This document shows, piece by piece, positions 3,165 to 49,575 of a stretch of 64,000 nucleotides of DNA (its first letter is position 1; every line of letters starts with the position of its first letter). The notes beneath the pieces are model-generated. The model ran no database searches and was not told the DNA's origin. It saw nothing but the letters and a program-made list of their open reading frames with translations. The DNA is from Desulfoglaeba alkanexedens ALDC. Its GTDB lineage: Bacteria; Desulfobacterota; Syntrophobacteria; Syntrophobacterales; DSM-9756. The translations under genes were made by a program, and so were the position numbers. The DNA is taken from NCBI RefSeq assembly GCF_005377625.1, contig NZ_CP040098.1:2593279-2657278 (forward strand), given 5' to 3'.

Positions 3165-3174
3165 GGAGCTAACG

Positions 3175-3333: not shown

Positions 3334-3406
3334 TGCTCCCTCGCCCCTGAAATTATCAATCATAGATGAATTTAGATCGTGCGACAACTATCCTGACACA
3401 GGGGGC

Positions 3407-4642: not shown

Positions 4643-4706
4643 CACAGGGGGCGATCCGGGAGCCGGAATCCATTACCTTGCTACAAAAATCAGACACCCC
4701 GATTGG

Positions 4707-4913
4707 GTAGCGTAGAAAATAATAGACCTGATATTTGATGCCAAATTCTATTTCCCCTCCCCTTGTGGGAGGGGACTGGGGGGATGGGAATGAAACTGAT
4801 TGACATACGTTAATTTTCTCACCCTCACCCCAACCCTCTCTCATCAAGGGAGCGGGGGATTTTTTTGACCTTCGTTAACCTTTTTGCTTAAGGTCTCCAG
4901 ATTAGAACGCTAC
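4707..4913. repeat. MITE-like dispersed repeat, copy 1
   Basis: 207 bp starting GTAGCGTAGAAAATAATAGA and ending ...AGAACGCTAC, so the tips are imperfect inverted repeats. It includes a C/T-rich CCCTCCCCTTGTGGGAGGGG hairpin. A second, shorter copy with the same ends is at 27523-27667. It codes for nothing. The remaining bases up to 5101 contain a small hairpin (TGACCCC/GGGGTCA, 5025-5040) that may end transcription of the radical SAM gene, and nothing else recognised. Confidence 0.65.
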
Positions 4914-5101
4914 CCCCGATCTTATATGAAGATAGAAGATTCACCAATAATGTCGATTGGTTATTGTGCCACGTTTTTGGGCTCTACCCCACTGCCCCGT
5001 ATCCCGAATTTTCATGCTTCGTTGTGACCCCACGGGGTCATGGGGGTTATTGAGAAGATACCAAGTCAAGTTTACGGATTAAGGCTTGTGGCATTCGCAG
5101 C

Positions 5102-6106: not shown

Positions 6107-6160
6107 TGCGAGAATCCCTTTCCGTGCACGGATGTTTGAAACAATGGCAATTACACAAAA

Positions 6161-33885: not shown

Positions 33886-34848
33886 ATGGCTATTTCCTAT
33901 CAGCGTCGTCTACAACGATTGCTTGAAATCCTTGTAGAGGTCAAGAGTCAACCCGGTCAGCCATTGAGAGGGCTGATCGACAAATTGGGTATCAGCAAGG
34001 CCCAGTTTTATAAAGATCGAAAGATCCTCGCCGAACTCGGCTTTTCCTTTCATTATGACCGATGCGCCGGGCGTTTCGTCGTCGATGGAGACGCCTTTCT
34101 GCCGGTAGAAGATTTGAGCGTGAGCGAACGGATTCTGCTGGTGCTCGCCGTGCGGCAATTGTCTTCCTCGGGAGATTTCTATATCGGCTATCACGCCTTG
34201 AAGGCCGCGAAGAAACTGATCGCCGGGTTGGATGGGGACAGCGCCCGCTTTGCCTCGGCGGTCTTCGACGACCTGGTGCTCAGAGAAGGCTTCGGCTGCC
34301 GACCGGACATCGTGGAGCGCCTTCAGGAAGCCGTTGCGCAGCGCCGACGGATCCGGATCGATTACCTTAAGCCCGGCGCGTTCAAGCCGGCTTGCTACGA
34401 ACTGGACCCCTATTCCTTTTTCTTTCGGCGCCGAGCCCTGTACGTGGAAGGCCATTGTCCCACTCGCAAGGCGCTGCGCACGTTCCGGGTCAATCGCATC
34501 CAGCGCGTCGCCTCAACCGGCATCTTTTTTCAACCAAGGGAAGACTACGATTTCGGGCGCCGCTCTCGAAGCGCCTTTTCCGTTTTCACCTCGGAAAACA
34601 CGCAAGCCGTTCGGGTGCGGTTCAGCTCCAGGGCGCGCCCCTATATCGAAGAAATCTTGTGGCATCCGTCTCAGCAACTGCAAGCCGGCAAGGACGATTC
34701 CCTGATCTTCACCGCGGACGTGGCTAACCCCCGCGAAGTGCTCTGGTGGGCCATGAGCTGGGGAGGGGACGCAGAGATTCTCGAGCCGGACTGGCTACGC
34801 AGGGAAGCGGCCCGGGAAAGCCGGAAAATGGCCGAGCTCTACCGTTGA
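33886..34848 (+). CDS. WYL-domain regulator of the CRISPR-Cas operon
   Basis: 320 residues. The N-terminus is an HTH/DeoR-like winged helix (LQRLLEILVEVKSQPGQPLR, GISKAQFYKDRKILAELGFS). The WYL domain (about residues 145-230) has RRIRIDYLKPGAFKPACYEL and RALYVEGHCPTRKALRTFRV; the final WCX-like part follows (TAVRVRF-type strands). WYL proteins bind nucleic acid ligands and often control CRISPR and other defence loci. It is the first gene of the operon, 23 bp ahead of the large-subunit gene, and a palindrome sits just upstream, so autoregulation is likely. Confidence 0.88.
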   Translation: MAISYQRRLQRLLEILVEVKSQPGQPLRGLIDKLGISKAQFYKDRKILAELGFSFHYDRCAGRFVVDGDAFLPVEDLSVSERILLVLAVRQLSSSGDFYIGYHALKAAKKLIAGLDGDSARFASAVFDDLVLREGFGCRPDIVERLQEAVAQRRRIRIDYLKPGAFKPACYELDPYSFFFRRRALYVEGHCPTRKALRTFRVNRIQRVASTGIFFQPREDYDFGRRSRSAFSVFTSENTQAVRVRFSSRARPYIEEILWHPSQQLQAGKDDSLIFTADVANPREVLWWAMSWGGDAEILEPDWLRREAARESRKMAELYR

Positions 34849-34871
34849 CCCCACGGCATCAGGAGTATTTC

Positions 34872-36881
34872 ATGGATCTATTTCCTCCATCGTGTTTCTG
34901 CTTGCTGGACGAAACGGAATGGGAGGCTCTGGTCGATTCCTCCAGCCGCGATTCGTACCAGCCGCACCTCAGCCGTTTCCTGCGCGCCACCGGGCAGAGC
35001 CGCCTGCTCCGCCGAATGGCTCTCAGCGCGTCTGCAAAGCCCTTTGCCTTCCCCCATGTGGAAATAGATGGCCATGGATGGATCGTCGATAAGGCGGGAA
35101 CGTGCCGCGGCCGACTCGTGAGGCTTTCCCTTCCCGCCCGTTCTTACGAACCCCAACTGGCTCTAAGCTATGACTGGTTTTGGAGCGAATGGTGCTCGTT
35201 TCTCTGCAGTGCTACTTGCTGGGCCCAAATACGGCATGGGGAAGTGGATCTGGTCTTGAGCCGCCGCCATGAAGCGTGGGATCGCATCGAAGAGCAAGGA
35301 ATAACCCGTTGGCTCAAAGAGCGGTGGGAGCAGTGCTGGCAACACCTGGGATCGCGGGCCCATCTGGAGCAGTCGCTCGCCCTCTACTTGGAGCACAAGA
35401 CCCTTTTCAAGAAGCAGGCGAGTCCATGGGGCGTCAAGGACATCCCCGTCTTTTCCCGAGATCTCGCCGAGTTCTTGGTCGAATACTACAAGAACGGTCC
35501 GCACCGGCTGAAGCTTTTCAAGAAGGTGACCCTCCCCGCCAAAACTCATGAGCTGGAAGAATTGCTCGACCGGGGGACCTTCACCTCCATCCCTTTTCCT
35601 TTTAACGAAACAGAGCATACCGCGGTTCCGCCCGGGGACTGCTTTCTCGGTCGTTCCAATCCCGTAGCCTGCCACAGCTGCGGGCGTGCGATAGCTCGCA
35701 GAGAGTCCTATCCGCGGCTTGCCCTTTTCCTCAAAGACGCCGACGAGCGTCCCCAGTCCGGCAAACACAAAGACGAAAAACCGCTCTTTTGCCCGCTATG
35801 CGTCGCCATGGTCCTTGTCTGCCCGGTCAAGCTGACCCCGGAAACCTTGACGGTCCGATTTCTATCCTCCGACGAGGACTCCACGGTCGGTACAACGGCA
35901 ACCGAGGAACTGCGTAAGTACGTAGCCCAGAGCCTTCACGTTCATGCCGGGAACTTTGTGAGCCTGCATGTGCCCGAACGAGCCGACGGCAAATTCCTGG
36001 CCGCCTTGTGGGGGGCGCAGGCCTACAGCCTGTGGAAGATGGCTGTGACCTTTCCTCCGGAACTCTTTCAACGGGGATTCGGCGTGGAAGTCTTCCCCGG
36101 GGAGGAACAGTTCCGGCTTCCCCGGTGGCTGCTATGGTTCACCTCGGCGCTCGCCCACTGGCACCATGGGTTCGAATACCGATGCTACGCTGTGAACGAA
36201 CTGCGTGTCCCCTTCGCCCAGTTCCTGCGCCTGGCGGCGCGGGGGAAGGTCTTTCACGCTTTCTACACCCTGATGGCGGGCGGCGTGATCCAGGAAGACA
36301 GTCGTTCGTGGCGCTGGATCGCACTGCAGGACATCTGGGCTCAATTGGAAACCCTGATGCAAGAGGAGGATGTGATGCCGCTTCCGGACTACCCCACTAT
36401 CGTGGGCTTCGCCGGGTTGCTCCTGCCCCTGGCCGAACGCGTCGAATACCGGAAACGGAGCAACCCCAAGGAGGCCAAACGCGCCATCGGGAAGCTCCTG
36501 GAGGAGGTGGACCGGCCCATCCAGTACGCCTACACGGCGGCGCGCGAAGCAGGAGACAGTACGTTCATCTTCTGCCGCCGCGCGCAGAACCGTACGTTCT
36601 ACGACAAGGCGGTGGAACTTCTGGATCGGGCCGGAGAGGATGTGGAAAGCCTGAGGCGCGAAGGCCGGCGGATTGTGGAAGAACGGGAGGCCTTCGCCTG
36701 GGCTCGAGATGCCGAGGAGCAGATCTTCATCGGCCCGGACCAGGTGGTTCGGGTGACCTGTTATCTCGTCAGCGAAGGCGAGGCGCCTCCCTACGCGGCC
36801 GAAGCGGACTGGCGCGCCTTCGCCTACCAAGTCAAACTCGCTCTGTGGAGCATGTTTCCGCATTACCTCGGAACTGAATGA
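34872..36881 (+). CDS. Candidate Cascade large subunit (Cas8/Cas10d-like) with zinc ribbon
   Basis: 669 residues from ATG 34872 (AGGAG 6 bp upstream). Only one motif is clear: a zinc ribbon CHSCGRA (Cys 267/270) and CPLC (Cys 307/310), as in several Cas8 and Cas10d subunits. I find neither an N-terminal HD motif nor a GGDD-type palm, so it is not a standard Cas10d; a separate HD gene lies downstream. The last 150 residues are helical and charged (RAGEDVESLRREGRRIVEER) and could be a built-in small-subunit (Cas11-like) domain. Function as PAM-reading large subunit is inferred from size and from its place directly before cas7 and cas5. Confidence 0.65.
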   Translation: MDLFPPSCFCLLDETEWEALVDSSSRDSYQPHLSRFLRATGQSRLLRRMALSASAKPFAFPHVEIDGHGWIVDKAGTCRGRLVRLSLPARSYEPQLALSYDWFWSEWCSFLCSATCWAQIRHGEVDLVLSRRHEAWDRIEEQGITRWLKERWEQCWQHLGSRAHLEQSLALYLEHKTLFKKQASPWGVKDIPVFSRDLAEFLVEYYKNGPHRLKLFKKVTLPAKTHELEELLDRGTFTSIPFPFNETEHTAVPPGDCFLGRSNPVACHSCGRAIARRESYPRLALFLKDADERPQSGKHKDEKPLFCPLCVAMVLVCPVKLTPETLTVRFLSSDEDSTVGTTATEELRKYVAQSLHVHAGNFVSLHVPERADGKFLAALWGAQAYSLWKMAVTFPPELFQRGFGVEVFPGEEQFRLPRWLLWFTSALAHWHHGFEYRCYAVNELRVPFAQFLRLAARGKVFHAFYTLMAGGVIQEDSRSWRWIALQDIWAQLETLMQEEDVMPLPDYPTIVGFAGLLLPLAERVEYRKRSNPKEAKRAIGKLLEEVDRPIQYAYTAAREAGDSTFIFCRRAQNRTFYDKAVELLDRAGEDVESLRREGRRIVEEREAFAWARDAEEQIFIGPDQVVRVTCYLVSEGEAPPYAAEADWRAFAYQVKLALWSMFPHYLGTE

Positions 36882-36907
36882 GCTACGGGAACAGGAAGGG
36901 AGATATC

Positions 36908-37819
36908 ATGGCCAAAGCGGCTGAAAACGATGGAAAGAACGCCAAGACCCTCAGCGGACTGCCGGAATCTCAGGAACCCCGGCGCCATTACGACATTTAT
37001 GCCATCCTGGAGGCGCCTCAGGAGCTCTATTTCGGCGACGAGAAGGAAGTGAACGTGAATATTGTGGAGAAGGTCCGGGTGACGACCGCCCGGGGTGCGG
37101 TGGAAAAATGCACCATCGCCCCGTCCAAGCGCCGCGGTGTGGAACGCCGCTGCCTGCTGTGGAGCGATGCCGGCGGCAGGCTGCTCATGGACAAGCTCCA
37201 GTGCGGCATTCCCAACACGTGTTGCCGCGACGACTGTCCGGTGTGTGCCATATTCGGCGGCCTTATCGCCGGCGAAAAGACCTTCATCGGGCGCTTGACC
37301 CACGGCGGGGGCGTGGCCGTGGCCCCGGAAATCGCTCTGGAAAAACAGCGGGCCATGCATCCGGCCCTGATAACCAAGGAAAAAGACAATACGCCCATGC
37401 CTTACCGCAAAGAGTATGCGCAGCCCGGGCTGCTTTATCCGATCAGCAACCATCTGCTTTCGGTGACCGAAAAGGAATTCGGCGCTGCGGCCTATGCGTT
37501 CCTGTTGAGCCTGCACCGGCTGGGAGCCGGAAATCCGAAGGGACTGGGCTTCGCGCGCGCCGCCTGGAACGGCCATTCCGAGGCTGTCGAACCGCTGCTG
37601 GTGGTGGACAGCTACCGGGTGCCGCTCGGCGAACGGCCCTTGGTCAGTCCGTCGATCACCGACAACCAGGAAGCCGTGAACCGGTTCGTCCGGCTGGCAG
37701 AAACGTACAAGCAAGACGCTCGCGACGCCTTCGAAAGGCGACTCGGCGCGCAGGCCCTGGCGTTTCTGCAATCTTGCGCATCGGAGTTCGAAAAGCGCGT
37801 ACTTCGCGCGGACAGCTGA
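36908..37819 (+). CDS. cas7: Cas7 backbone protein, Csc2-like
   Basis: 303 residues from ATG 36908, behind AGGAAGGGAG; an earlier ATG at 36878 overlaps the upstream stop. RRHYDIYAILEAPQELYFGD begins a RAMP-type RRM fold. A cysteine cluster CGIPNTCCRDDCPVCAIFGG (Cys 99, 105, 106, 110, 113) should bind zinc, as in Csc2, the Cas7 of type I-D. MPYRKEYAQPGLLYPI and LLSLHRLGAGNPKGLGFARA fit the second half of that family. Several copies would coat the crRNA. It is flanked by the large subunit and cas5. Confidence 0.75.
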   Translation: MAKAAENDGKNAKTLSGLPESQEPRRHYDIYAILEAPQELYFGDEKEVNVNIVEKVRVTTARGAVEKCTIAPSKRRGVERRCLLWSDAGGRLLMDKLQCGIPNTCCRDDCPVCAIFGGLIAGEKTFIGRLTHGGGVAVAPEIALEKQRAMHPALITKEKDNTPMPYRKEYAQPGLLYPISNHLLSVTEKEFGAAAYAFLLSLHRLGAGNPKGLGFARAAWNGHSEAVEPLLVVDSYRVPLGERPLVSPSITDNQEAVNRFVRLAETYKQDARDAFERRLGAQALAFLQSCASEFEKRVLRADS

Positions 37820-37830
37820 GGGGATTCCCG

Positions 37831-38682
37831 ATGAAGTCCATCTGGATTTGCTCTTTAAAGCTGCAGCCTGCGGGGCCGCTCACTTTTCGCCGGATGCCCT
37901 CGGGGAGCCTGCCCATCATGACTTACCCGTTCGTACCGCCCACTACCCTGAACGGATATCTAGTGCGGCTTTTGAAAATCGCTGAAGGGGCCCGGAGCGG
38001 GGGTCACGATGCCGACTGGCCGGGCTACGGCGAAGATTGGTTCGCCAAGGGCAAGGATGGAAAGCCCGCCCCGGGCCAAGCTTACATACTCACTTTGAGT
38101 CCCGAATACCGCCCCTTAGGCGCATTTCCCCCGCCCGGTGGGTGGTCCATCCACAAGACCCGGCGACAAGGACCGAAGAATTTCGCCCATGTTGAATTTT
38201 CCCAGATTATCCGCAGCAAGGGAAAGATTCGCCAGGATTTCCAGCTGCATCACTGGGAATATCTGCTCTGCGATGAGCTTACGGGCTGGGTGGCGGCGTC
38301 GGAACCAGCCCCACTGGAACGCCTCCGAAGTCTTGTCAACTACGGTGGCAAGGTGGGCAAGGAGGGCTTCCTGGTGGTGAAGGCGGTGGACAAACCGCAG
38401 GAAGCTCCGCGCCGTTCGGGCACCTTCGAGCCGGTGGGGCTCGTGCCGGCGTCGGTTCGGCCCGCCGGTGGAACTTTCTTTCACCTCTACGGGCACCGGT
38501 GGAGTGCGGACTATTTGTGGATAAATGGCGAGCGTGGTGGTGTGACAGGCTACGTTCCCATCGGTGTCTGGTGGGAAACGGGAACCCTGCAGGGACAACA
38601 TTGGAGTCTCGGCGACGGGTGTGGCATTCCGCTGGAAGCCCCTGACCTATTCCTTCAGGGCGATCGAGAGGTCTTTTCGTGA
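37831..38682 (+). CDS. cas5: Cas5-like Cascade subunit
   Basis: 283 residues from ATG 37831 with a GAGGGG site. The N-terminus SIWICSLKLQPAGPLTFRRM, followed shortly by YPFVPPTTLNGYLVRLL, is the Cas5 pattern (RAMP strand, then YPxPPPTT-type turn). Glycine-rich SLVNYGGKVGKEGFLVV lies in the middle. Cas5 caps the 5' handle of the crRNA and contacts the large subunit. Identification rests on the N-terminal pattern and on position after cas7; I cannot tell whether it is nearer Csc1 or the I-A type. Confidence 0.7.
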   Translation: MKSIWICSLKLQPAGPLTFRRMPSGSLPIMTYPFVPPTTLNGYLVRLLKIAEGARSGGHDADWPGYGEDWFAKGKDGKPAPGQAYILTLSPEYRPLGAFPPPGGWSIHKTRRQGPKNFAHVEFSQIIRSKGKIRQDFQLHHWEYLLCDELTGWVAASEPAPLERLRSLVNYGGKVGKEGFLVVKAVDKPQEAPRRSGTFEPVGLVPASVRPAGGTFFHLYGHRWSADYLWINGERGGVTGYVPIGVWWETGTLQGQHWSLGDGCGIPLEAPDLFLQGDREVFS

Positions 38683-38699
38683 TTGGGAGGAAGACCTTT

Positions 38700-39401
38700 A
38701 TGGCGGCATGGGGACGCATCTTTTTCATCTACAGCAAGCAGGGCGCCACGGAGGGGCTTCAGGCGGTCTACGGCCAACCCCTGGAAAACCACGTGGAAAA
38801 TTGCGTATCGCTTTTTACTCATCTTCAAGGCGAGCTGCTCTCCACGGATACCCGGGACAAGCTCGAAACCGCCGTCCGCCTGCACGACCATGGAAAACGG
38901 GAGACCTTCCGGCTCTTCAAGGATTCGGAAACAAAGCGCTGGAGTTATAGCTTCGCGGGGCACAGGTTCCGAGTGCCCCACAAGGATCCCTATGTGGCGG
39001 CGCTCATCCGCAGCCATCACGAGTTTTCCGTGGATCGGATCCAGCGCGAGCGGGCTCTGTTGAGAGGGGCGGAACGGGATCGGTTTGCCGACGACCTGTA
39101 TCTCTTGTGCATGGTGGACCAACTGGAAGCGGAACTGGCGGTCAAGGAAGTGGAGGGAGCAAAGGATGTGGCGCGTACCTTTATGGAATTCGTCACTCGG
39201 CGTGATGAGCGTGACGGTTCCTACCGGGTGGTGCCCTGGCCGTTCACGGGGGACCGTTTGAGCCTGGAGTTGCATCTGCACCCCCTACCCCTAGAAGTTT
39301 TCAACAGCTTATCGAAAGAAGAGGCCGTCACCCGGCATATCCGCAACATGGAGTCCGGTACGGCCGAGACCCGACATATCATGCTCACGGCAGACAATTG
39401 A
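38700..39401 (+). CDS. cas3'': Stand-alone Cas3'' HD nuclease
   Basis: 233 residues from ATG 38700 (GGGAGG 9 bp upstream); a GTG at 38679 overlapping the cas5 stop is the other choice. HD-domain metal ligands are seen in order: PLENHVENC, VRLHDHGKRETF, GHRFRVPH and RSHHEFS. In type I systems this nuclease degrades the displaced DNA strand. Here it is separate from the helicase encoded next, as in type I-A, and not fused to the large subunit as in type I-D. The metal ligands look complete, so activity is expected. Confidence 0.82.
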   Translation: MAAWGRIFFIYSKQGATEGLQAVYGQPLENHVENCVSLFTHLQGELLSTDTRDKLETAVRLHDHGKRETFRLFKDSETKRWSYSFAGHRFRVPHKDPYVAALIRSHHEFSVDRIQRERALLRGAERDRFADDLYLLCMVDQLEAELAVKEVEGAKDVARTFMEFVTRRDERDGSYRVVPWPFTGDRLSLELHLHPLPLEVFNSLSKEEAVTRHIRNMESGTAETRHIMLTADN

Positions 39402-39419
39402 TAAGGAAGGAATCCTGAC

Positions 39420-41252
39420 ATGCCTCCTTGCATGGACATGGAGCGTTTCTATCGGCAGGTGGCCGGATTCCCGCCCAACCCGTTGCAGCGCGCTGCGTGG
39501 GAAGCGTTCTGGAAGACGGAACACCCGGCGATGTTGATCCGCGCGGGAACTGGATCGGGAAAAACCGAGGCTGCCCTACTACCGCCCCTGGCGGCTGGGC
39601 GTCGCGTTCTGTTCGTGCTTCCTTTCAAGGCACTGCTTGAGGATCTGAGCATCCGCTTGGCGCGCATCGGCTGCCGGTTTTCCAAGGCATTCGAACGCCC
39701 GCTTGCCCTCACGCTGGACATGGGCGGAAGTTGTCGCCGCATCCGATGCGTAGACGGCACCTATAACGAGCTCACGAGCCATCGGCACCTCTTTGCTGAC
39801 GACCTCATCGTCACCACCCTGGACAAGTTTCTTTTTCGGTTGTTCGGCTACGGGGAACCCGTCAAATCCTACATCTTTTGTCACCGGGTGTTCGGATCCG
39901 CCCTGGGCAAGCATCCTTTCCTTATCTTCGACGAAGCCCATGACTACGACGGGCTTGCCTTTTCCAACTTTTCCCGGCTGCTTCGAACCCTCTATGAAAA
40001 GGGTAAGGATGTGTGCGTGATGAGCGCCACTCTTCCGCGCGAAACGGCTTCGTTCCTGGATCCCGTGGACGCGATGGAAGGAGACCTGGCGACGGAACAG
40101 AAACGCTTCGAAACGAACGTGCTCGGGCGCACCTCCCAGCAGCTGCATCTGGTGCGCCGCTCGGCGCCCAACACGGCGCGGGGCGAACGAGCGGCGTTTC
40201 TGGATGCTATGGTCGAGGAGATAAAGCGGCGCATTGGACCCGACCGGCGTCTCATCGTTCGCACGGAATGGATCGGCGACCTACTCGATCTCCGAGAGCG
40301 ACTCGAAGATCACGACCCTCTCGTCTACCATGGGCGGCTCACCATGGCACGGCGCCGCAAGGTGATCGCGCGGTTGCAGCAATGCCAGGAGAAGGACGCA
40401 GGGTTCCTGCTGCTGGCCACGTCGGCCGTGGAAGCGGGCTGCGACCTGGATGCCCACACCATCGTGACCGAGCTGTGCAATCCGGACTCGCTGGTGCAAC
40501 TCGCCGGACGTTGCAACCGGCGCGGTTGCATGGAAGACGCAGAACTGGTCGTCGTCGGAAACGGCGTGAAGCCGCAGCTACGAACCTTGCCACAAGATCG
40601 TCATGAGGATTACCTGAACGCTCTGGAGGCCATGGGGGCGACTTTCGACGCCGCCGCCCTTCGCCCTTTCTTCCATTCACCCAAGGGAGACTGGATGGGG
40701 GAGATTCTTTTCGACATGCTATGGGACTACGTCTACGACGGGGACCTCAGTTGCAAGCCGCTCTGGGACCGGGGCATATTGGTCACTCGCAGCTGGGAAC
40801 CGTCGGTGACCCTGTGTACAGGGTTGAATCCGGAGGAACTGCCGGAAAATCCCGTGCAGGTGTCTTTGTCGCGGTTGGCCTCTCGTGTCGCCCCGAACGA
40901 GATGGAAGACCGCCCGGCCCATGAAATCTTTTCCGTGGAAAAGGACGGCATGTGGCATGCCGATCTCTACCGCGTTTATTTCGGCCGGGAGGGCCATGAC
41001 GTTCGGCGGCGCACCTATTCCTTGCAAGGGCGCGTCGGCGCCTACTGGACGACGCTTCTTTGCGTCATCAAGGAACCGTTCCGCGACCGCTACTTCGATT
41101 CTTGCTTGGGCTACACCCGGTTGCCCACGGTTTTGCGCCGGGCTTGGAAGGTCGGCTTTGAGCGTACCCTGGTTGTGAAGCCTGGGATCAAAAAAGACGG
41201 CCGGGTGGACCTCAATAAATGGGAAGCCCTGCTCTGGTACCTAGAGAGATGA
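39420..41252 (+). CDS. cas3': Cas3' superfamily 2 helicase
   Basis: 610 residues. Helicase motifs: NPLQRAAWEAFW (Q), RAGTGSGKTEAAL (I), TTLDKFL, LIFDEAHDYD (II, DEAH), VMSATLPRETA (III), TSAVEAGCDLDAH (V) and QLAGRCNRRG (VI). No HD domain is attached. It would unwind DNA ahead of the separate HD nuclease once Cascade has bound. It starts 18 bp after the HD gene, behind AAGGAAGG, and cas6 starts one base after its stop. Confidence 0.9.
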   Translation: MPPCMDMERFYRQVAGFPPNPLQRAAWEAFWKTEHPAMLIRAGTGSGKTEAALLPPLAAGRRVLFVLPFKALLEDLSIRLARIGCRFSKAFERPLALTLDMGGSCRRIRCVDGTYNELTSHRHLFADDLIVTTLDKFLFRLFGYGEPVKSYIFCHRVFGSALGKHPFLIFDEAHDYDGLAFSNFSRLLRTLYEKGKDVCVMSATLPRETASFLDPVDAMEGDLATEQKRFETNVLGRTSQQLHLVRRSAPNTARGERAAFLDAMVEEIKRRIGPDRRLIVRTEWIGDLLDLRERLEDHDPLVYHGRLTMARRRKVIARLQQCQEKDAGFLLLATSAVEAGCDLDAHTIVTELCNPDSLVQLAGRCNRRGCMEDAELVVVGNGVKPQLRTLPQDRHEDYLNALEAMGATFDAAALRPFFHSPKGDWMGEILFDMLWDYVYDGDLSCKPLWDRGILVTRSWEPSVTLCTGLNPEELPENPVQVSLSRLASRVAPNEMEDRPAHEIFSVEKDGMWHADLYRVYFGREGHDVRRRTYSLQGRVGAYWTTLLCVIKEPFRDRYFDSCLGYTRLPTVLRRAWKVGFERTLVVKPGIKKDGRVDLNKWEALLWYLER

Positions 41253-41253
41253 T

Positions 41254-42099
41254 ATGCCCGTAGCCGCCGTCTTTCGGTTGAAGTGCCTTCGCGCCGCCAA
41301 GCCTCCGCGCGCCTTTCGCGCCCTTTTTCACCCGGTGTTTCTGGAGCGCATGCGCCGAACAGACGACCGCCTCGGCCGCATCCTCCACGATGCCGGGCGC
41401 AACGCGCCCTATTCTCTTTCTCCCGTGTGGGGGACGGTGGACCGCAACGGGCGCCTGCTTGAGAATGGCACCTACCGGGTGCGCCTCGGCCTGCTGGAAG
41501 ACGCTCTGGAAGATGCCTTACACCTGTCTCTGGAACGGGGCGTCTGGCGGGAGCCCATCGATCTGGGAGGCGTTCCCTTCGTGCTTGAGGATCTGCTTCT
41601 AGGGGAATCGTCGGAAGGCGGCGGCTGCGGGCGGGCCCGGTACGAGGACCTCTGGACGGCCGCGGAAGATGCCGCGGCGGCCGTGGGCCGGAAGGGAAGC
41701 CTCAAGGTCCGCGTCCGATTCCTGAGCCCCATGGCTTTCAAGCGCGGCGACCTGCATTATCCGCTGCCCGATGTCAGCCTGGTGACAAGACACTTGACCG
41801 AGCGCTGGAACGCCGCGTGTCCTCACGCTGTACCCGACCCTGTGGGCGCGGCGGAGATTTCCATCGCGCGGTTGAAGCTCGAGACCAGCCGCTATGCCTT
41901 AAGAAACGGAGGCACCGTCATCGGCGCCTTCGGATCGGTCACCTATGTGGCTCAAGGGGCTCGGGAGAGCCTCACGGCGCTGCACGCGCTGCTTCACTTC
42001 GCAGCCTTTTCCGGCATCGGGGTCAAAACCACGCAGGGCATGGGCCAATGCGCCGTCAGTGACACCCAAGATAGAAGGCCCGTTCCCGGGACGGCATGA
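41254..42099 (+). CDS. cas6: Cas6 pre-crRNA endonuclease
   Basis: 281 residues. The C-terminal glycine-rich loop GIGVKTTQGMGQ is the Cas6 signature, preceded by FGSVTYVAQGA and LLHFAAFS. The N-terminus AVFRLKCLRAAKPPRAFRAL starts the first RAMP fold. It should cut inside each repeat, leaving the usual 8-nt handle (ATTGAAAC) on crRNAs. The repeat can form a short stem (TCCCT/AGGGA) suited to recognition. The catalytic His cannot be fixed without an alignment. Confidence 0.85.
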   Translation: MPVAAVFRLKCLRAAKPPRAFRALFHPVFLERMRRTDDRLGRILHDAGRNAPYSLSPVWGTVDRNGRLLENGTYRVRLGLLEDALEDALHLSLERGVWREPIDLGGVPFVLEDLLLGESSEGGGCGRARYEDLWTAAEDAAAAVGRKGSLKVRVRFLSPMAFKRGDLHYPLPDVSLVTRHLTERWNAACPHAVPDPVGAAEISIARLKLETSRYALRNGGTVIGAFGSVTYVAQGARESLTALHALLHFAAFSGIGVKTTQGMGQCAVSDTQDRRPVPGTA

Positions 42100-42115
42100 T
42101 CCCGATGAGGGCGTC

Positions 42116-43765
42116 ATGATGCTCATTCCTATCTCCTATCTCAACGCCTACGTCTATTGCCCGCGAAGGTTTTACCTGGAATGTGTGCGCGGCATGTACG
42201 AGGACAATGTCTACACTCTGGAAGGTCGCGAGATGCACCGCCGCGTGGACGATCCCGGCAAGCAGGCGGTGCCCTTGCGCAAAGAGGACCGCATCCATCG
42301 GCGCTCCGTATGGTGGAGCTCGGAGCGGCTCGGCGTCACCGGACGCTTGGATCTGCTGGAAGAAGACGGGACAGGCTGCCTATACCCGGTGGAATACAAG
42401 AAGGGCAAGGCCCCCAAGGGGCGGGATCCTTGGCTTAACGACCAAATCCAACTTTGCGCCCAGGCGCTCCTCATGGCGGAAAACGGACTGCCGCTTCCGC
42501 CCGCCGGCTACCTTTATTTCGTCGGTTCGAGAAAGCGAGTGGAAGTCCGCATCACGGAGGAGCTGTGCGCCCAGACCCGGGAAGTGATCGCCGCCTGCCG
42601 GGCCCTGCTGGATGAGGACACGCTGCCGCCTGCCGTGGATAACCGAAACCGATGTTTCGGGTGCTCGTTGCTCCCTCTTTGCCTACCGGAGGAAGAAGAG
42701 GTGCTCGCGGGGCACAAGACGAACGCCAGGCGCATCCTGGCTCAACGGCTGGACCAGCAGTCGGTCTACGTGGATCGGCTGGGAGCCCGGGTAAGCCTAA
42801 GCCAAGGGATGCTTCAGGTTTGGGCGCCGGGAGAGGAAAGGCTCGGTGAGGCATCCCTGGAGCAGCTCCAGGAGCTCGTGCTCATAGGGCCCGTGCAGGT
42901 GACCACTCAAGTCCTTCACGAATGTTGTCGCCGGGAGATTCCTGTCCACTACCTCACCTTGTACGGCCGCTACCTGGGTACTACAGCGCCGGCGTTCAGT
43001 CGCCACAGCCTGCTGCGCCGCGCGCAGTGGCAGAGGCACTTCGATCCCGAGCGCAGCAACGAGATCGCGAGAGATATCGTGATGAGTAAACTCACGAGCG
43101 CCCGGACGCTGGCTATGCGGTACCTGCGCGACGAGCGAAGCGAAGAGGACGTGCAGGCCTTCCGGCAGATAAAGGATCTGATCCGGCGCTGCCGGGACTG
43201 CAGCGATACCGAGGGCCTGCGCGGCCTGGAAGGCATGGGAACGCGCCATTATTTCCAATGTTTTCCGCGCTTCATCAAGCCTAGGCTGCGAGAGACCTTC
43301 CAGTTCCAGGGGCGGGTGCGCCGCCCACCCGATAACGCCGTCAACGCGCTACTCAGTTTCGGCTATGCGATTCTCGCCAAAGACTGCATGGGAGCCGCGG
43401 CCCGGGTGGGCTTCGATCCCTATTGCGGCTTTTACCACGTGATGAAGTACGGGCGCCCGGCTCTTGCCCTGGACATCATGGAATATTTTCGCCAGCCCAT
43501 CGTCGATTCCGCCGTGCTCGGTGCCATCAACAACGGGGTTTTCACGCTCCGGGATTTCATGGCCTACCAGGGGACATGCTATCTCAGCGAAAAGGGCCGC
43601 AAGAAGTTCCTCGCTCAATACGAGATGCGCAAGAAAGACCATGTAAGCCATCCGGTGTTCGGCTATCGACTCAGTTACGAGCGGATGATCGAACTGCAGC
43701 TCCGCATTCTAGGCAAATATCTGCTGGGCGACCTGGACAAATACGTGGGGTTTCATATCCGATGA
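42116..43765 (+). CDS. cas4-cas1: Cas4-Cas1 fusion, spacer acquisition
   Basis: 549 residues from ATG 42116 (GATGAGG upstream). Residues 1-205 are Cas4: YCPRRFYLEC (first cluster Cys), GRLDLLEEDG and YPVEYKKGKAP (nuclease D, E and K), and CFGCSLLPLC (three more Fe-S cysteines). The rest is Cas1 with catalytic Glu in LEGMGTRHYF, His in DPYCGFYHVMKYGRPALALD and Asp/Glu in DIMEYFRQPIVDS. Cas4 trims and PAM-selects new spacers, Cas1 with Cas2 integrates them. Such fusions are known in some type I subtypes and assure a joint action. Confidence 0.94.
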   Translation: MMLIPISYLNAYVYCPRRFYLECVRGMYEDNVYTLEGREMHRRVDDPGKQAVPLRKEDRIHRRSVWWSSERLGVTGRLDLLEEDGTGCLYPVEYKKGKAPKGRDPWLNDQIQLCAQALLMAENGLPLPPAGYLYFVGSRKRVEVRITEELCAQTREVIAACRALLDEDTLPPAVDNRNRCFGCSLLPLCLPEEEEVLAGHKTNARRILAQRLDQQSVYVDRLGARVSLSQGMLQVWAPGEERLGEASLEQLQELVLIGPVQVTTQVLHECCRREIPVHYLTLYGRYLGTTAPAFSRHSLLRRAQWQRHFDPERSNEIARDIVMSKLTSARTLAMRYLRDERSEEDVQAFRQIKDLIRRCRDCSDTEGLRGLEGMGTRHYFQCFPRFIKPRLRETFQFQGRVRRPPDNAVNALLSFGYAILAKDCMGAAARVGFDPYCGFYHVMKYGRPALALDIMEYFRQPIVDSAVLGAINNGVFTLRDFMAYQGTCYLSEKGRKKFLAQYEMRKKDHVSHPVFGYRLSYERMIELQLRILGKYLLGDLDKYVGFHIR

Positions 43766-44043
43766 AGCGCAACTATCTGGTTGGCTACGATATCAGTGAC
43801 CCAAAGCGGCTACAGAAGGTGGCCAAAGTGATGAAGGAATACGGCAGCCGCGTGCAGTACAGCTTCTTTCATTGCAGCCTTTCAACAGCCCAAAAGAAAC
43901 GCATGATGGACCGAATCCGCACCTTCATCCGCGAAGATGAAGACCAGGTGCTGATCCTACCGGTCACGGAAACCCAACTGAAAGAGATGGAGTTCATCGG
44001 GCTGAAGAGCCGTCTCGATATGGAGGGGGTTCTTATCTTCTAA
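43762..44043 (+). CDS. cas2: Cas2, spacer acquisition partner
   Basis: 93 residues; the ATG overlaps the Cas4-Cas1 stop (ATGA). NYLVGYDISDPKRLQKVAKV with the conserved Asp at the end of strand 1, then GSRVQYSFFHCSLS and the C-terminal strand. It forms the dimer at the centre of the Cas1-Cas2 integrase. It is the last cas gene; the array leader follows. Confidence 0.95.
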   Translation: MKRNYLVGYDISDPKRLQKVAKVMKEYGSRVQYSFFHCSLSTAQKKRMMDRIRTFIREDEDQVLILPVTETQLKEMEFIGLKSRLDMEGVLIF

Positions 44044-44345
44044 GCTCCCGCGTCGCTTCGCCATGCGGCGCTCTTCCAGTGGCCGCAAAATACCCCGAAA
44101 ACCGATCAGCGGTGAGTTGCGCGCAAGAGGTGCAAGCGTGCTTTCGGGACTCAAGGGCGCGAGAGGTGATGCGGAAGCAAAAGGCCGGGGACCGCTCGCG
44201 ATCAAAAACCACCACAAATTTTAAGAACATAGCACCCGATGAGACGTTACACAGCAAACTGCGGAGGGCTATTCGGGGTCCTTTTCGGAACTCCTCGCAA
44301 TTCTTCTTGCAGTTCGCTGATATTATTTGCTAACCTACAGGCGTG
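44044..44345 (+). promoter_or_regulatory. CRISPR leader
   Basis: 302 bp between cas2 and the first repeat. The 3' end of the repeat (ATTGAAAC) points away from this side, which marks it as the leader end where new spacers enter and transcription starts. The last part is AT-rich (TATTATTTGCTAA at 44321-44333); I cannot fix a promoter. No gene is seen. Confidence 0.75.
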
Positions 44346-47300
44346 GTAATCAAAGACGAATTCCCTGGAAGGGATTGAAACTACTGCAAGTCGATTGAAT
44401 CTTTCAAATCATCCAGCGTGTAATCAAAGACGAATTCCCTGGAAGGGATTGAAACCGACAAGCCCTCTTTGCTGCTGACCTGTGGGGATACTTGTAATCA
44501 AAGACGAATTCCCTGGAAGGGATTGAAACCGCAAAATATTCGACTGCGCGGACAGCCTAAGCTCGGCGTAATCAAAGACGAATTCCCTGGAAGGGATTGA
44601 AACTCTTGGTTAGTCGTACCATGTCGTGCGTCCTTGTTTTCGAGTAATCAAAGACGAATTCCCTGGAAGGGATTGAAACATCGGTCTCGGTTCCGGCACC
44701 AGCCAAAGCAATGACGCGTAATCAAAGACGAATTCCCTGGAAGGGATTGAAACTCGGCGCCACGCCATTTTTTCTCGGGGCCGTAAGGGCGTAATCAAAG
44801 ACGAATTCCCTGGAAGGGATTGAAACACGTTTACAAGCGCTGAATATCCCCAGTTATCCTTCGGTAATCAAAGACGAATTCCCTGGAAGGGATTGAAACA
44901 TCAAACAACCAAATATTGAATCCAGTTGGGTGCATTAGTAATCAAAGACGAATTCCCTGGAAGGGATTGAAACCAGCTAACACGGAGATGTGGGACTGGT
45001 GTCCAGATGTCGTAATCAAAGACGAATTCCCTGGAAGGGATTGAAACGGAACATGAGAACAAGATTCCGCCGGTTTTTCGTGGTAATCAAAGACGAATTC
45101 CCTGGAAGGGATTGAAACGTTTGGACAAAGATGACAACTGCGGCGAAGACGGGATCGTAATCAAAGACGAATTCCCTGGAAGGGATTGAAACAGGCCACC
45201 TCGACCACCATATTCGAATCTGCTGATGGGTAATCAAAGACGAATTCCCTGGAAGGGATTGAAACAACCACCTTGACGGCCTCGAGCCTGCCCAACTCCT
45301 GTAATCAAAGACGAATTCCCTGGAAGGGATTGAAACTTCTGAGGGCCAAAAGCCAAAGTCGGAACCATCCCCGGTAATCAAAGACGAATTCCCTGGAAGG
45401 GATTGAAACAGATTCTGCCATTGATCCCATTCGCAAATTGTTGGTGTAATCAAAGACGAATTCCCTGGAAGGGATTGAAACATGATATCCGACGGGTGCC
45501 GGCGTCGGATATCGGCATGGTAATCAAAGACGAATTCCCTGGAAGGGATTGAAACGATTCCGCGGGTACCAGGCAGTACTTCGTTCCGGCCGGGTAATCA
45601 AAGACGAATTCCCTGGAAGGGATTGAAACGGCGTGAAACGGATGATCCAATCCAGGTAGTCCGATGGGGTAATCAAAGACGAATTCCCTGGAAGGGATTG
45701 AAACTTGGCTGCGTCCAATTCCAGCCCGGCTTTGTAGATTTGGTAATCAAAGACGAATTCCCTGGAAGGGATTGAAACTTAGAGATGGAGGGGTTGGGGT
45801 TGTTGCATAAGTTCGGGTAATCAAAGACGAATTCCCTGGAAGGGATTGAAACTATTTTTAATCATCTCGGCCCAGCTGTTCTCTATCGAGGTGTAATCAA
45901 AGACGAATTCCCTGGAAGGGATTGAAACCGAGTAGTTCCTTGGCCCGCTTCTCGTCGACGCGGAGTAATCAAAGACGAATTCCCTGGAAGGGATTGAAAC
46001 ATTTACAGGATTTCCCCATCATGGATAGTTTGCCCGAGTAATCAAAGACGAATTCCCTGGAAGGGATTGAAACATTTACAGGATTTCCCCATCATGGATA
46101 GTTTGCCCGAGTAATCAAAGACGAATTCCCTGGAAGGGATTGAAACATTTCACACTCCGTCCTTCTACTTCGAGCAGATGCGCAAAGTAATCAAAGACGA
46201 ATTCCCTGGAAGGGATTGAAACGTTGAATAGCCCCGGCGATCTCGCAGAGTAGTACCGTCGTAATCAAAGACGAATTCCCTGGAAGGGATTGAAACACTT
46301 CGAGCCTGTGGCATAGTACCGATATTATAGATATGTAATCAAAGACGAATTCCCTGGAAGGGATTGAAACCGTCCTGACTCCATCGTCCCATTGTGTGTG
46401 GTCCAATCGTAATCAAAGACGAATTCCCTGGAAGGGATTGAAACAGAGTGTAACCCTCCTCCAATTTGCCTGCATATCCGGGTAATCAAAGACGAATTCC
46501 CTGGAAGGGATTGAAACATGTGTGCGGTAGACGGTCCCAAACCGGAGTTCCCTGACGTAATCAAAGACGAATTCCCTGGAAGGGATTGAAACCCCATGAA
46601 TCGCTTAAACCCACAAAAGCCATTTTATGTAATCAAAGACGAATTCCCTGGAAGGGATTGAAACCCTGCCGGCGATCAATCTTGTGGCCAAGGGATTGAC
46701 GGGTAATCAAAGACGAATTCCCTGGAAGGGATTGAAACATCTGCAAAGTTAAGCGTGAGGGTGGACGGCACTTTTGGTAATCAAAGACGAATTCCCTGGA
46801 AGGGATTGAAACGGCTATTCTAGCCCGGGAGTTATGCGAAACAGTTAGGTAATCAAAGACGAATTCCCTGGAAGGGATTGAAACATGGTTATCTGGTACC
46901 CCAAGGGACCACGGCTGCATCACGTAATCAAAGACGAATTCCCTGGAAGGGATTGAAACTGGATGATGTCTGAGTCGGCCTCAGGAATGCTGATAGAGTA
47001 ATCAAAGACGAATTCCCTGGAAGGGATTGAAACATGGTTATCTGGTACCCCAAGGGACCACGGCTGCATCACGTAATCAAAGACGAATTCCCTGGAAGGG
47101 ATTGAAACTGTATGGGGCCCCCATTCTTACCAGTTACCTCTTGGGTAATCAAAGACGAATTCCCTGGAAGGGATTGAAACATAAGTGTTACCCCTCTTAG
47201 CCGCGTGCCACTTCCATTGGTAATCAAAGACGAATTCCCTGGAAGGGATTGAAACCCTGTTGGAGCCGCCTGAGCGCCCCCGTGTATTCATCGTAATCAA

Positions 47301-47460
47301 AGACGAATTCCCTGGAAGGGATTGAAACATTGACCGTGTGGAACTTTCGTGGGCCGCCGTGCCGGAGTAATCAAAGACGAATTCCCTGGAAGGGATTGAA
47401 ACGCGATTACAGCCGCTCTGTTCCGGCGCCTTATGGGTGTAATCAAAGACGAATTCCCTG
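44346..47460 (+). CRISPR. CRISPR array: 42 full repeats, 42 spacers, truncated 43rd repeat
   Basis: The 36-bp repeat begins GTAATCAAAGACGAATTCCC and ends TGGAAGGGATTGAAAC; I saw no variant copies. Repeat-to-repeat spacing is 71-76 bp, giving spacers of 35-40 bp. The first full repeat is at 44346, the last at 47367-47402. The 43rd (47439-47460) stops after 22 bases where an IS21 element begins. Two spacers occur twice: 46001-46037 equals 46074-46110 (neighbours), and 46885-46923 equals 47034-47072 (one other spacer between them). Transcription is rightward, continuing from the cas operon. Confidence 0.98.
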
Positions 47461-49470
47461 TGTCACCATCGGAATAAAATGTCTGGTAAACGCCGGAATA
47501 AAATGTCCTCCCAGATGAGCGAAGGGTTATTCCTCCAGCAAGACCCAAGAGAGCCGGAGGTGACCCATGCTCAAAAAGGAGGACTGCATGGAGATCAGAG
47601 CACAAGTTGAAAAGGGTGTCTACAAGAAGGACATCGCAGAAAGCCTGGGAGTGCATCCAAAAACCATAAGCCGTGCTCTTAGTCGAGGAGGAGTACCCTC
47701 GGGGAAAAGACCCGGTGCAAGGGTGAGCAAACTTGATCCCTTCAAACCCTTGATCGACCAGCTCCTGAGAGATGGAGTCTGGAATGCTATGGTGATCTTG
47801 CGTGAGATCGAACAGCGAGGCTACACGGGCGGGACCACCATCCTTCGGGAGTACATCAGCCCCAGAAGGCCCATGAGGCAAAGCCGGGCAACGGTACGGT
47901 TTGAAACAGATCCGGGAGTTCAGATGCAAAATGATTGGGGAGAGCTCACAACCGAAGTGGCTGAAATCCCACAGAAGGTCTACTTCAGTGTGAATACCCT
48001 CGGATTTTCCCGGCGTCTCTTCTTCTGGTGTGCCCCCAGGAATGATGCCGAGCACACCTACGAAGGGATCATCAGAGCCTTCGAGTACTTTGGAGGAGTA
48101 GTAATAGAGGTGCTCGTGGATAACCAGAAAGCAACGGTTATTGTCCACAGGATCGGGGAGAGTGTTCGCTTTAACGAACGATTTATAGATCTTGCCGGCC
48201 ACTATGGCTTCACCCCCAGAGCCTGTCGCCCGAGAAGAGCAAGGACCAAGGGAAAAGATGAGCGGATGGTGGGCTATATCAAGCACAACTTCTTTGTGCG
48301 TTACCGCAAGTTCGAGAGCTTCGCCCAGATGAACGCTCTCGCTGAGAAGTGGCTCAGAGAGGAAACCGATCAGAGGTTGCACGGAACAGTCAAGGAAATC
48401 GTAGCCGAACGATTCTCCCGTGAGGCTCCTCATCTTCGTCCCCTTCCTGCCCTGCGGTATGACACCTCTTATCTCGAGCACCGGTGTGTCCACTGGGATG
48501 GCTTCATCGATGTTTTGGGCAATAGATACAGTGTGCCCTCTCAGCTGTGTGGACAAACGGTCCGAGTGAGGATCGGGTTGGATGGAACCTTGAGAGTCTA
48601 CGCCGAAGAGACCCTGGTGGCCGAACACACCCTTCGCAGTGCAGCCGAGGGATGGGGAAGCGTTGCAGCCCATCATGCCCAATTGTGGCAGGAGGCATTG
48701 CAGGTTGAGCGAAGGGATCTGTCGATCTACGAGGAGGCGAGCCGATGGAGCTAGCAGGCCTCCTTGAGAAGATGAAGATGGAGCACCTTCTCTCGCAGAT
48801 CGATTCAGTCTGTGAGCAGGCATCAAAGAGGGATCTCTCCTATAAAGACTTCCTTGCGGAAGCCCTTCAGGCCGAATGGCGGGGCAGACACGGAAAGGCC
48901 GTTGAGGCCAGACTCAAGATGGCCCGATTCCCCTGGGTGAAAACTCTTGAGCAATTTGACTTCTCGTTTCAGCCAAGCATCGATCGCAAGGTGATCCGTG
49001 AACTCTCGGGACTCTCCTTCGTCGATAGGGCAGAGAATGTGATCCTCCTTGGCCCTCCGGGGGTGGGAAAGACACATCTTTCCATTTCGCTGGGAGTAAA
49101 AGCCGTAGAGGCCGGATACCGAGTCCTCTTCCTTACTCTCGAGTCGATGCTTACTCGGCTCACTCGAGCCCGGATGGAGAACCGGGTGGAGAGGCAACTC
49201 CAACAGTTTGTCTACCCAAGAGTGCTCATCATCGATGAGATGGGATACCTCCCGATGAGCCGAGATGAAGCAGGGCTTTTCTTCAGGCTTCTTACCAGAA
49301 GATACGAGAAGGCCTCTTTGATCATCACCTCCAACAAGAGCTTTGTTGACTGGGGGGAGATCTTCAATGATCAGGTGCTGGCCACAGCCATACTCGATAG
49401 GCTCCTTCACCACTGCACCACCCTCAACATCAAAGGGGATAGTTTCAGGCTCAAAGAAAAGAGAAAGGCA
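47461..49470 (+). mobile_element. IS21-family element inserted in the CRISPR array, right end lost
   Basis: The left tip begins TGTCACCATCGGAATAAAAT, with a second CGGAATAAAATGTC copy at about 47493, as in IS21 elements. istA and istB follow on the plus strand. No complementary right tip is found anywhere up to 51 kb, and no CRISPR repeat resumes after it. The true right boundary is unknown; 49470 is only an approximate point where IstB similarity ends. Confidence 0.75.
47567..48754 (+). CDS. istA: IS21 transposase IstA
   Basis: 395 residues behind GGAGGTG. N-terminal HTH (KDIAESLGVHPKTISRALSR), then the integrase-type DDE core: MQNDWGELT (first Asp), EVLVDNQKATVI (second Asp) and KGKDERMVGYIKHNF (Glu). 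The C-terminal beta domain includes GNRYSVPSQL. It appears full length. Its stop overlaps istB by 10 bp, the normal IS21 arrangement. Confidence 0.93.
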   Translation: MLKKEDCMEIRAQVEKGVYKKDIAESLGVHPKTISRALSRGGVPSGKRPGARVSKLDPFKPLIDQLLRDGVWNAMVILREIEQRGYTGGTTILREYISPRRPMRQSRATVRFETDPGVQMQNDWGELTTEVAEIPQKVYFSVNTLGFSRRLFFWCAPRNDAEHTYEGIIRAFEYFGGVVIEVLVDNQKATVIVHRIGESVRFNERFIDLAGHYGFTPRACRPRRARTKGKDERMVGYIKHNFFVRYRKFESFAQMNALAEKWLREETDQRLHGTVKEIVAERFSREAPHLRPLPALRYDTSYLEHRCVHWDGFIDVLGNRYSVPSQLCGQTVRVRIGLDGTLRVYAEETLVAEHTLRSAAEGWGSVAAHHAQLWQEALQVERRDLSIYEEASRWS

Positions 49471-49575
49471 GGGCTTGTCGGAGCCGGTCCAGCAATTCCC
49501 GGAGCGGATGGTCTCTGGGCGAAAAGCGGGCGTGAAAGGAGAGTCTTCGAGTGTTCAGCGGGCCGTTTGGGGTGA
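48745..49575 (+). CDS. istB: IS21 helper ATPase IstB, altered C-terminus
   Basis: 276 residues. LLGPPGVGKTHLSISLG (Walker A), RVLIIDEMGYLPMS (Walker B) and LIITSNKSFVDWGEIFND are intact. After GDSFRLKEKRKAGL, where IstB proteins usually end within some residues, the frame runs on through about 40 unrelated residues (from GAGPAIPGADG). This suggests that a deletion removed the end of the element and joined istB to foreign sequence. Confidence 0.88.
   Translation: MELAGLLEKMKMEHLLSQIDSVCEQASKRDLSYKDFLAEALQAEWRGRHGKAVEARLKMARFPWVKTLEQFDFSFQPSIDRKVIRELSGLSFVDRAENVILLGPPGVGKTHLSISLGVKAVEAGYRVLFLTLESMLTRLTRARMENRVERQLQQFVYPRVLIIDEMGYLPMSRDEAGLFFRLLTRRYEKASLIITSNKSFVDWGEIFNDQVLATAILDRLLHHCTTLNIKGDSFRLKEKRKAGLVGAGPAIPGADGLWAKSGRERRVFECSAGRLG

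What the first reader, a model, noticed from the sequence alone, without database searches (positions are those of the whole stretch)
33886..44043. Type I CRISPR-Cas operon mixing I-D-like and I-A-like traits
Seen: nine tightly packed genes (gaps from -4 to 26 bp) in the order WYL, Zn-ribbon large subunit, Cas7, Cas5, stand-alone HD, helicase, Cas6, Cas4-Cas1, Cas2. Known: in type I-D the HD domain is part of Cas10d and Cas7 is Csc2; in type I-A Cas3' and Cas3'' are separate. Here a Csc2-like Cas7 occurs with a separate HD nuclease and a large subunit lacking HD and palm, plus a Cas4-Cas1 fusion. Inference: this is a rare variant or an unnamed branch between I-A and I-D.
Basis: partly seen in the sequence, partly recalled or inferred. 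Interest (0 to 1): 0.8.

Follow-up and report, generated by a model that had tools for sequence, protein, structure and literature searches.

The report
Split-Cas3 variant of Thermus-type "I-B" CRISPR
This is a complete bacterial immune system of a rare CRISPR family already known from the hot-spring bacterium Thermus and filed under subtype I-B; here its DNA-cutting enzyme is split into two genes, and several traits (target-recognition motif, interchange with subtype I-D, backbone protein) look more like subtype I-D than the label suggests.

Summary
The nine-gene operon is real and complete, with a 42-repeat array downstream. It is not an unknown system. The same effector family (WYL, large subunit, Cas7, Cas5, Cas3, Cas6) lies on Thermus thermophilus pTT27 and Picosynechococcus plasmids. 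The literature calls the Thermus system subtype I-B; its interference, PAM and Cas6B structure are published. PADLOC has family-specific profiles labelled Cas8b/Cas7b/Cas5b; Pfam and NCBIfam recognise none of the three proteins. The stand-alone HD is the domain that is fused to the helicase in Thermus and Picosynechococcus, so it is not evidence for I-A. Split Cas3 and a Cas4-Cas1 fusion recur in other Desulfobacterota: a new variant of a known kind.

Thermus spacers show a GTN-type PAM, which a published survey lists for I-D and not I-B. In Picosynechococcus this effector cassette replaces an I-D cassette, keeping cas6/4/1/2 and the repeat. Cas7 aligns, through one bridging sequence, with Csc2. 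The helicase tree is unresolved; large subunit and Cas5 match neither subtype. A conserved internal start in the large-subunit gene predicts a 168-aa Cas11. The I-B label may be wrong, but a separate subtype is not shown.

The parts
33886..34848 (+). WYL/WCX-domain transcriptional regulator
   Evidence: Pfam WYL 5.9e-18 and WCX 9.1e-20; in the same place in Desulfobacterota and Thermus relatives
34872..36881 (+). Large subunit of 669 aa, PADLOC 'Cas8b' family PDLC01527, with a four-cysteine zinc ribbon
   Evidence: PDLC01527 4.9e-41 over residues 265-666; no Pfam or NCBIfam match; C267, C270, C307, C310 invariant
36375..36881 (+). Predicted internally translated Cas11-like small subunit of 168 aa (inferred)
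   Evidence: ATG with AGGAGG-type Shine-Dalgarno conserved at the homologous place in several lineages
36878..37819 (+). Cas7 backbone subunit, family PDLC01388; alternative start at 36908
   Evidence: PDLC01388 6e-105, Cas7d PDLC01322 4e-4; C4-FG motif shared with Csc2-type Cas7
37831..38682 (+). Cas5, family PDLC01389
   Evidence: PDLC01389 3.1e-48
38679..39401 (+). Stand-alone HD nuclease, Cas3''; alternative ATG start at 38700
   Evidence: HD motifs conserved; family HMM hits the N-terminus of fused Thermus and Picosynechococcus Cas3
39420..41252 (+). Cas3' helicase
   Evidence: TIGR01587 cas3_core 9.8e-34, above cut-off; PADLOC Cas3d PDLC01196 1.1e-56
41254..42099 (+). Cas6 crRNA endoribonuclease
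   Evidence: Pfam CRISPR_Cas6 6.3e-18; PDB matches Cas6A/Cas6B of T. thermophilus
42119..43765 (+). Cas4-Cas1 fusion
   Evidence: NF049935 cas4g_cas1g 1.3e-203, above cut-off
43762..44043 (+). Cas2
   Evidence: Pfam CRISPR_Cas2 1.3e-21
44044..44345 (+). Presumed leader, about 300 bp
   Evidence: Lies between cas2 and the first repeat; repeat 3' end ATTGAAAC implies + strand transcription
44346..47402 (+). CRISPR array: 42 perfect 36-nt repeats, 41 spacers of 35-40 nt
   Evidence: no other copy of this repeat in the genome
47439..47460 (+). Truncated last repeat, cut by an IS21-like element
   Evidence: IstA-like 47567-48754 and IstB-like 48745-49575

Best explanation
A complete, probably working, DNA-targeting type I CRISPR-Cas system of the effector family that databases and the Thermus literature call subtype I-B, in a Desulfobacterota variant with Cas3 split into HD (Cas3'') and helicase (Cas3') and Cas4 fused to Cas1. 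Proposed working: Cas4-Cas1 and Cas2 insert about 38-nt spacers. The array is transcribed from the leader and cut by Cas6 at the 3' side of the repeat hairpin, leaving an AUUGAAAC 5' handle. Cas5, several Cas7, the zinc-ribbon large subunit and an internally translated Cas11 form Cascade. Cascade recognises a GTN-type PAM and opens an R-loop. Cas3' and Cas3'' then unwind and cut the DNA. The WYL protein regulates the operon. Shown here: gene content, homologies, conservation of the layout, motif integrity, and the PAM of the Thermus relatives. Inferred: all activity in this organism, its own PAM, and Cas11.
For: Gene content and profiles. The same nine-gene order occurs in the Desulfacinum MAG and G318, and from the large subunit on in G042 and G078, whose short contigs end in or before that gene. 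The same effector set in T. thermophilus HB8 and HB27 and in Picosynechococcus. Published interference by HB27 I-B (PMC10989782); TTHB224 Cas1 assigned to the I-B locus (PMC7515739); published I-B repeat identical to the repeat beside these genes, with PAM GGTN (PMC6452258). Cas6 of the HB8 locus is Cas6B, PDB 4c98. Stand-alone HD homologous to fused HD. GTN in 9 of 11 Thermus protospacers with up to 5 mismatches. Conserved repeat hairpin and ATTGAAAC end in four Desulfobacterota genomes. Internal start.
Against: No activity data in this organism, and none of its spacers matched phages or, for three tried, viral contigs, so its PAM is borrowed from relatives. The Shine-Dalgarno before the internal start is partly forced by the protein sequence (synonymous-shuffle P 0.13-0.52 per gene), and its product hits no Cas11 profile. 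The HB27 interference tests used TTN PAMs, which do not fit GGTN; this is unexplained. The array tail is cut by an insertion element.
Confidence: 0.8

Rival explanations
1. The family is a separate type I lineage closest to I-D, wrongly filed under I-B: an I-D relative in which the large subunit lost its HD and palm and became Cas8-like, with the HD free or joined to the helicase.
For: GTN-type PAM; a published survey lists GTN, GTT, GTG and GGTG for I-D and none of that form among 11 I-B PAMs (PMC8482600). In Picosynechococcus the cassette replaces an I-D cassette between 89-90% identical flanks, with cas6/4/1/2 products 96-99% identical and the same repeat. Cas7 aligns with the G004 I-D-variant Cas7 (hhalign E 6e-7), which aligns with Csc2 (E 4e-8), and shares the C4-FG motif. 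Best-scoring helicase and Cas6 profiles are Cas3d and Cas6d. Full helicase tree: sister to I-D, 99/98.
Against: Without long-branch rows the helicase grouping drops to 70/46 and AU does not reject grouping with fused Cas3 (p 0.205) or I-A (p 0.39). Cas7 tree unresolved. Large subunit and Cas5 show no kinship to Cas10d or Csc1, though these thin profiles have little power.
Confidence: 0.35
2. A fast-evolving but true member of canonical subtype I-B with an ordinary Cas8b, as labelled.
For: PADLOC labels of all three effectors; published I-B label in Thermus; HD-helicase Cas3 fused in Thermus and Picosynechococcus; helicase grouping with fused Cas3 not rejected.
Against: No Pfam or NCBIfam Cas7, Cas5 or Cas8 family of I-B is hit; the PADLOC Cas7 profile hits almost only this family; Cas7 falls outside the DevR group (100/99); PAM not of I-B kind.
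Confidence: 0.25
3. A genuine mixture of I-A and I-D, with an I-A-type separate Cas3''.
For: Separate HD and helicase genes; helicase HMM scores an I-A Cas3' (121 bits) above I-D Cas3' (38 bits); grouping with I-A not rejected.
Against: The HD belongs with the fused HDs of its own family and the family HD HMM does not hit the I-A Cas3''; Cas7 and large subunit are not Cas7a or Cas8a.
Confidence: 0.04

Closest known systems
Subtype I-B system of Thermus thermophilus pTT27 (HB8, HB27)
   Same: Same WYL, large subunit, Cas7 (47% identity), Cas5, Cas3, Cas6 order; same large-subunit zinc ribbon and internal start; repeat ending in ATTGAAAC
   Different: There HD and helicase are one gene, cas4 and cas1 are separate and divergently transcribed, and the large subunit is longer (766 aa)
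Picosynechococcus PCC 73109 plasmid locus
   Same: Same effector family (Cas7 52% identity); order WYL, LS, Cas7, Cas5, Cas3, Cas6, Cas4, Cas1, Cas2
   Different: Fused Cas3, separate Cas4 and Cas1, WYL divergent, adaptation genes and repeat shared with an I-D locus
Subtype I-D (Cas10d, Csc2, Csc1, Cas3')
   Same: GTN-type PAM in relatives, Cas6d-like Cas6, remote Cas7 similarity, Cas3' helicase separate from HD
   Different: No Cas10d; HD not in the large subunit; Cas5 not detectably Csc1
Canonical subtype I-B (Cas8b with Csh2 or Cst2/DevR)
   Same: Type I gene set; label in PADLOC and Thermus papers
   Different: Effector proteins hit none of the Pfam or NCBIfam families tested; PAM differs; Cas3 split
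Type I-G Cas4g-Cas1g fusion
   Same: Cas4-Cas1 fusion scores above the curated cut-off
   Different: Adaptation module only; effector is not I-G by profile

Membership tests
Thermus-type 'I-B' effector family | Family-specific large subunit, Cas7 and Cas5 (PDLC01527, PDLC01388, PDLC01389) | tested here: met
   4.9e-41, 6e-105, 3e-48
Thermus-type 'I-B' effector family | Fused HD-helicase Cas3 (seen in Thermus and Picosynechococcus; not known to be defining) | tested here: not met
   Two genes here; HD orthologous to the fused domain
Canonical subtype I-B | Cas7 of Csh2/Csd2 or DevR/Cst2 type | tested here: not met
   No PF05107, PF01905 or NCBIfam hit; outside DevR clade
Canonical subtype I-B | Cas8b large subunit homologous to Csh1, Cst1 or TM1802 types | tested here: inconclusive
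   Only the family-specific 'Cas8b' profile hits; structure models unusable
Canonical subtype I-B | I-B-type PAM (TTN, CCN and others) | tested here: not met
   Relatives show GTN; not measured in this organism
Subtype I-D | Cas10d large subunit carrying the HD domain | tested here: not met
   No Cas10d hit; HD is a separate gene
Subtype I-D | Csc2-type Cas7 | tested here: inconclusive
   Cas7d 4e-4; bridge through G004; tree unresolved
Subtype I-D | GTN PAM | tested here: met
   In Thermus relatives only (PMC6452258)
Subtype I-D | Csc1-type Cas5 | tested here: not met
   No significant match; low power
Subtype I-A | Cas8a with Csa2-type Cas7 and I-A Cas3'' | tested here: not met
   No such profile hits; HD HMM misses the I-A Cas3''
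Type I-G adaptation module | Cas4-Cas1 fusion | tested here: met
   NF049935 677 bits, cut-off 560
Cas11 by internal translation (I-B, I-C, I-D) | Internal start with ribosome-binding site at the large-subunit C-terminal domain | tested here: inconclusive
   Conserved Met and SD, but SD partly forced by sequence

The most novel reading that the evidence does not exclude
The Thermus-type 'I-B' family is a separate subtype, sister to I-D, that represents the postulated step in which the HD left the Cas10d-like large subunit (which shrank to a Cas8-like protein): free-standing HD in Desulfobacterota, fused to the helicase in Thermus and cyanobacteria, with the I-D PAM and exchangeable I-D adaptation and processing genes retained.
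Probability: 0.3. Interest if true: 0.65.

Novelty: new variant of a known kind. Interest (0 to 1): 0.4.

Why it matters
If the family is I-D-related, the present I-B label is wrong, and its PAM and editing tools in Thermus should be planned on I-D lines (GTN rather than TTN). It would also give a testable model of the published idea that other type I systems arose from a I-D-like ancestor by moving the HD nuclease from the large subunit to the helicase (PMC10212523). The Picosynechococcus cassette swap suggests that two very different Cascades can follow one crRNA, repeat and acquisition set. Even as an ordinary I-B variant it offers a split Cas3 and three effector proteins that Pfam and NCBIfam do not recognise.

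Tried and rejected
AlphaFold2 models of large subunit and Cas7 from two close sequences were unusable (pLDDT about 30), so no fold search was run. PDB sequence search with Cas7, large subunit and Cas5 gave nothing relevant. Viral-contig scans for relatives found none. Spacers of the window: no match in phages nor, for three of them, in viral contigs. The helicase tree first placed the family beside I-D at 99/98; removing long rows dissolved this, so it is not claimed. HD tree: deep branches unresolved, so fission and ancestral separation of the HD cannot be told apart. Profile-profile tests of large subunit and Cas5 were negative but weak: even canonical Cas10d failed to find the G004 Cas10d. 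Cas1 tree shows repeated exchange of adaptation modules and says nothing on the effector.

Full report
Observation. The operon is as described: WYL 33886-34848, large subunit 34872-36881, Cas7 36878-37819, Cas5 37831-38682, HD 38679-39401, helicase 39420-41252, Cas6 41254-42099, Cas4-Cas1 42119-43765, Cas2 43762-44043, all on the + strand with gaps of -4 to +23 bp. A CRISPR array follows in the same direction: 42 perfect 36-nt repeats (44346-47402), 41 spacers of 35-40 nt, 39 unique, and a truncated repeat at 47439-47460 where an IS21-like element begins. The repeat occurs nowhere else in the single-contig genome. The closest named relative is a Desulfacinum MAG.

What the proteins are. In PADLOC the large subunit hits Cas8b PDLC01527 (4.9e-41), Cas7 hits Cas7b PDLC01388 (6e-105) and Cas5 hits Cas5b PDLC01389 (3e-48), all labelled I-B; Cas7 also hits Cas7d PDLC01322 weakly (4e-4). 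Pfam and NCBIfam hit none of the three. The Cas7 profile is family-specific: of 297 genomes of the phylum only five match, four of them strongly, while in samples of 148 the common Cas7 families PF05107 and PF01905 match 41 and 11 genomes. The helicase passes the cas3_core cut-off, and Cas4-Cas1 passes the Cas4g/Cas1g cut-off.

It recurs, and part of it is known. The same nine-gene order occurs in the Desulfacinum MAG and in G318; in G042 and G078 the order from the large subunit on is the same, but those short contigs end in or before the large-subunit gene, so the WYL end is not seen. In a sample of 395 genomes of the phylum, five carry this Cas7 convincingly. On plasmids the Cas7 is found in 15 T. 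thermophilus and two Picosynechococcus records, and the loci inspected hold the same effector set. In T. thermophilus it is the published subtype I-B: the Cas1 gene TTHB224 is assigned to the I-B locus (PMC7515739), the published I-B repeat consensus fits the repeats beside these genes (PMC6452258), the HB8 Cas6 is Cas6B of PDB 4c98/4c9d, and HB27 I-B interferes with plasmids (PMC10989782). The annotation of those plasmids calls its large subunit, Cas7 and Cas5 hypothetical proteins.

The separate HD. An HMM of the Desulfobacterota HD proteins hits the N-terminus of the fused Cas3 of Thermus (1e-39) and Picosynechococcus (3e-30) but not Cas10d nor an I-A Cas3''. Motifs are intact, and split and fused forms are one clade (100/99). 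So the 'I-A-like' trait is a split of this family's own Cas3, or an old separate state kept; the trees cannot say which, because the family's inner root is not fixed.

I-D leanings. (a) PAM: spacers from the Thermus arrays match Thermus phages; GT at -3/-2 in 9 of 11 matches with up to 5 mismatches, usually GGTN. Lopatina et al. published GGTN for these arrays. Vink et al. list GTN, GTT, GTG and GGTG under I-D and none of that form among 11 I-B PAMs (PMC8482600); Synechocystis I-D uses GTN (PMC10212523). (b) Module exchange: Picosynechococcus PCC 73109 (this family) and PCC 7117 (I-D) share about 89-90% identical flanks, cas6/4/1/2 products 96-99% identical and the same repeat, with different effector cassettes between. 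(c) Cas7: family profile against the Cas7 of an I-D variant in G004 gives hhalign probability 92, E 6e-7; that protein against Csc2 gives E 4e-8; the C4-FG motif is in all seven family members, four of eight I-D proteins and G004, but in one of 16 others. (d) The full helicase tree put the family beside I-D at 99/98, but without long rows support falls to 70/46 and alternatives are not rejected, so this is not evidence. Large subunit and Cas5 match nothing convincingly.

A hidden tenth product. The large subunit has a Met at residue 502, preceded by AGGAGG, at the start of its C-terminal helical domain. Met plus a strong Shine-Dalgarno recur at the homologous place in G318, G078 and Thermus, near it in G034, and the Met with a weak one in Picosynechococcus. 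Within each gene only 0.3-1.4% of codon positions have as good a site (12% in Picosynechococcus), but because the residues there are K/E-E the sequence partly forces it (shuffle P 0.13-0.52 per gene). Internal translation of Cas11 is known in I-B, I-C and I-D (PMC11096372; PMC11899642, abstract), so a 168-aa Cas11 is likely but not proven.

Mechanism. Spacer capture by Cas4-Cas1-Cas2; + strand transcription from the roughly 300-bp leader; Cas6 cleavage after the conserved hairpin (AATTCCCTGNAAGGGATT in four Desulfobacterota genomes) leaving AUUGAAAC; Cascade of Cas5, Cas7, large subunit and Cas11; PAM reading by the large subunit (family knowledge); DNA degradation by Cas3' and Cas3''. Activity in this organism is inferred.

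Verdict. Real, complete and recurrent; a new variant (split Cas3 plus Cas4-Cas1 fusion) of a known but under-described family. The statement 'unnamed branch between I-A and I-D' fails on 'unnamed' and on I-A, but the I-B label itself looks doubtful and an I-D connection is a live possibility.

Noticed in passing
L025 (G004:C105) 1143-9107, - strand: A locus with PADLOC I-D profiles in which HD (250 aa), an HD-less Cas10d (693 aa) and Cas11d (205 aa) are separate genes, with Csc2-like Cas7, Cas5d and a 934-aa Cas3: an I-D variant with free HD, useful as a bridge sequence.
   Followed up: partly
L017 9350-16427 versus L062: In-place exchange of this effector cassette for a I-D cassette between Picosynechococcus plasmids, keeping cas6/4/1/2 and the repeat.
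   Followed up: partly
L024 7544-9675 (G162): Truncated remnant of the operon in a genome of the same family: WYL and the 5' part of the large subunit, then the similarity ends.
   Followed up: partly
L115 5000-18939 (G000:C1:3155500-3175400): A second CRISPR locus in the window's genome: Cas1, Cas2, its own array (repeat core GTCTCAATCCCCTCAAATCGGGGCCGT, about 41 copies) and a Cas10-like 850-aa protein beginning with an HD motif, probably type III.
   Followed up: partly
window 47461-49575: IS21-like element (IstA/IstB) inserted in the last repeat; array sequence beyond it is lost.
   Followed up: yes
L018 10654-13103: In T. thermophilus HB27 the Cas3 gene is annotated as two pieces, 600 and 219 aa, whereas HB8 has one 817-aa gene: a C-terminal break, different from the HD split here; HB27 I-B is nevertheless reported active.
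   Followed up: no
L075 17658-18118 (Thermus phage Lalka8): A CRISPR array is annotated on this phage; its repeat is not the one of this family.
   Followed up: no
window 46001-46110 and 46885-47072: Two spacers are each present twice in the array.
   Followed up: no
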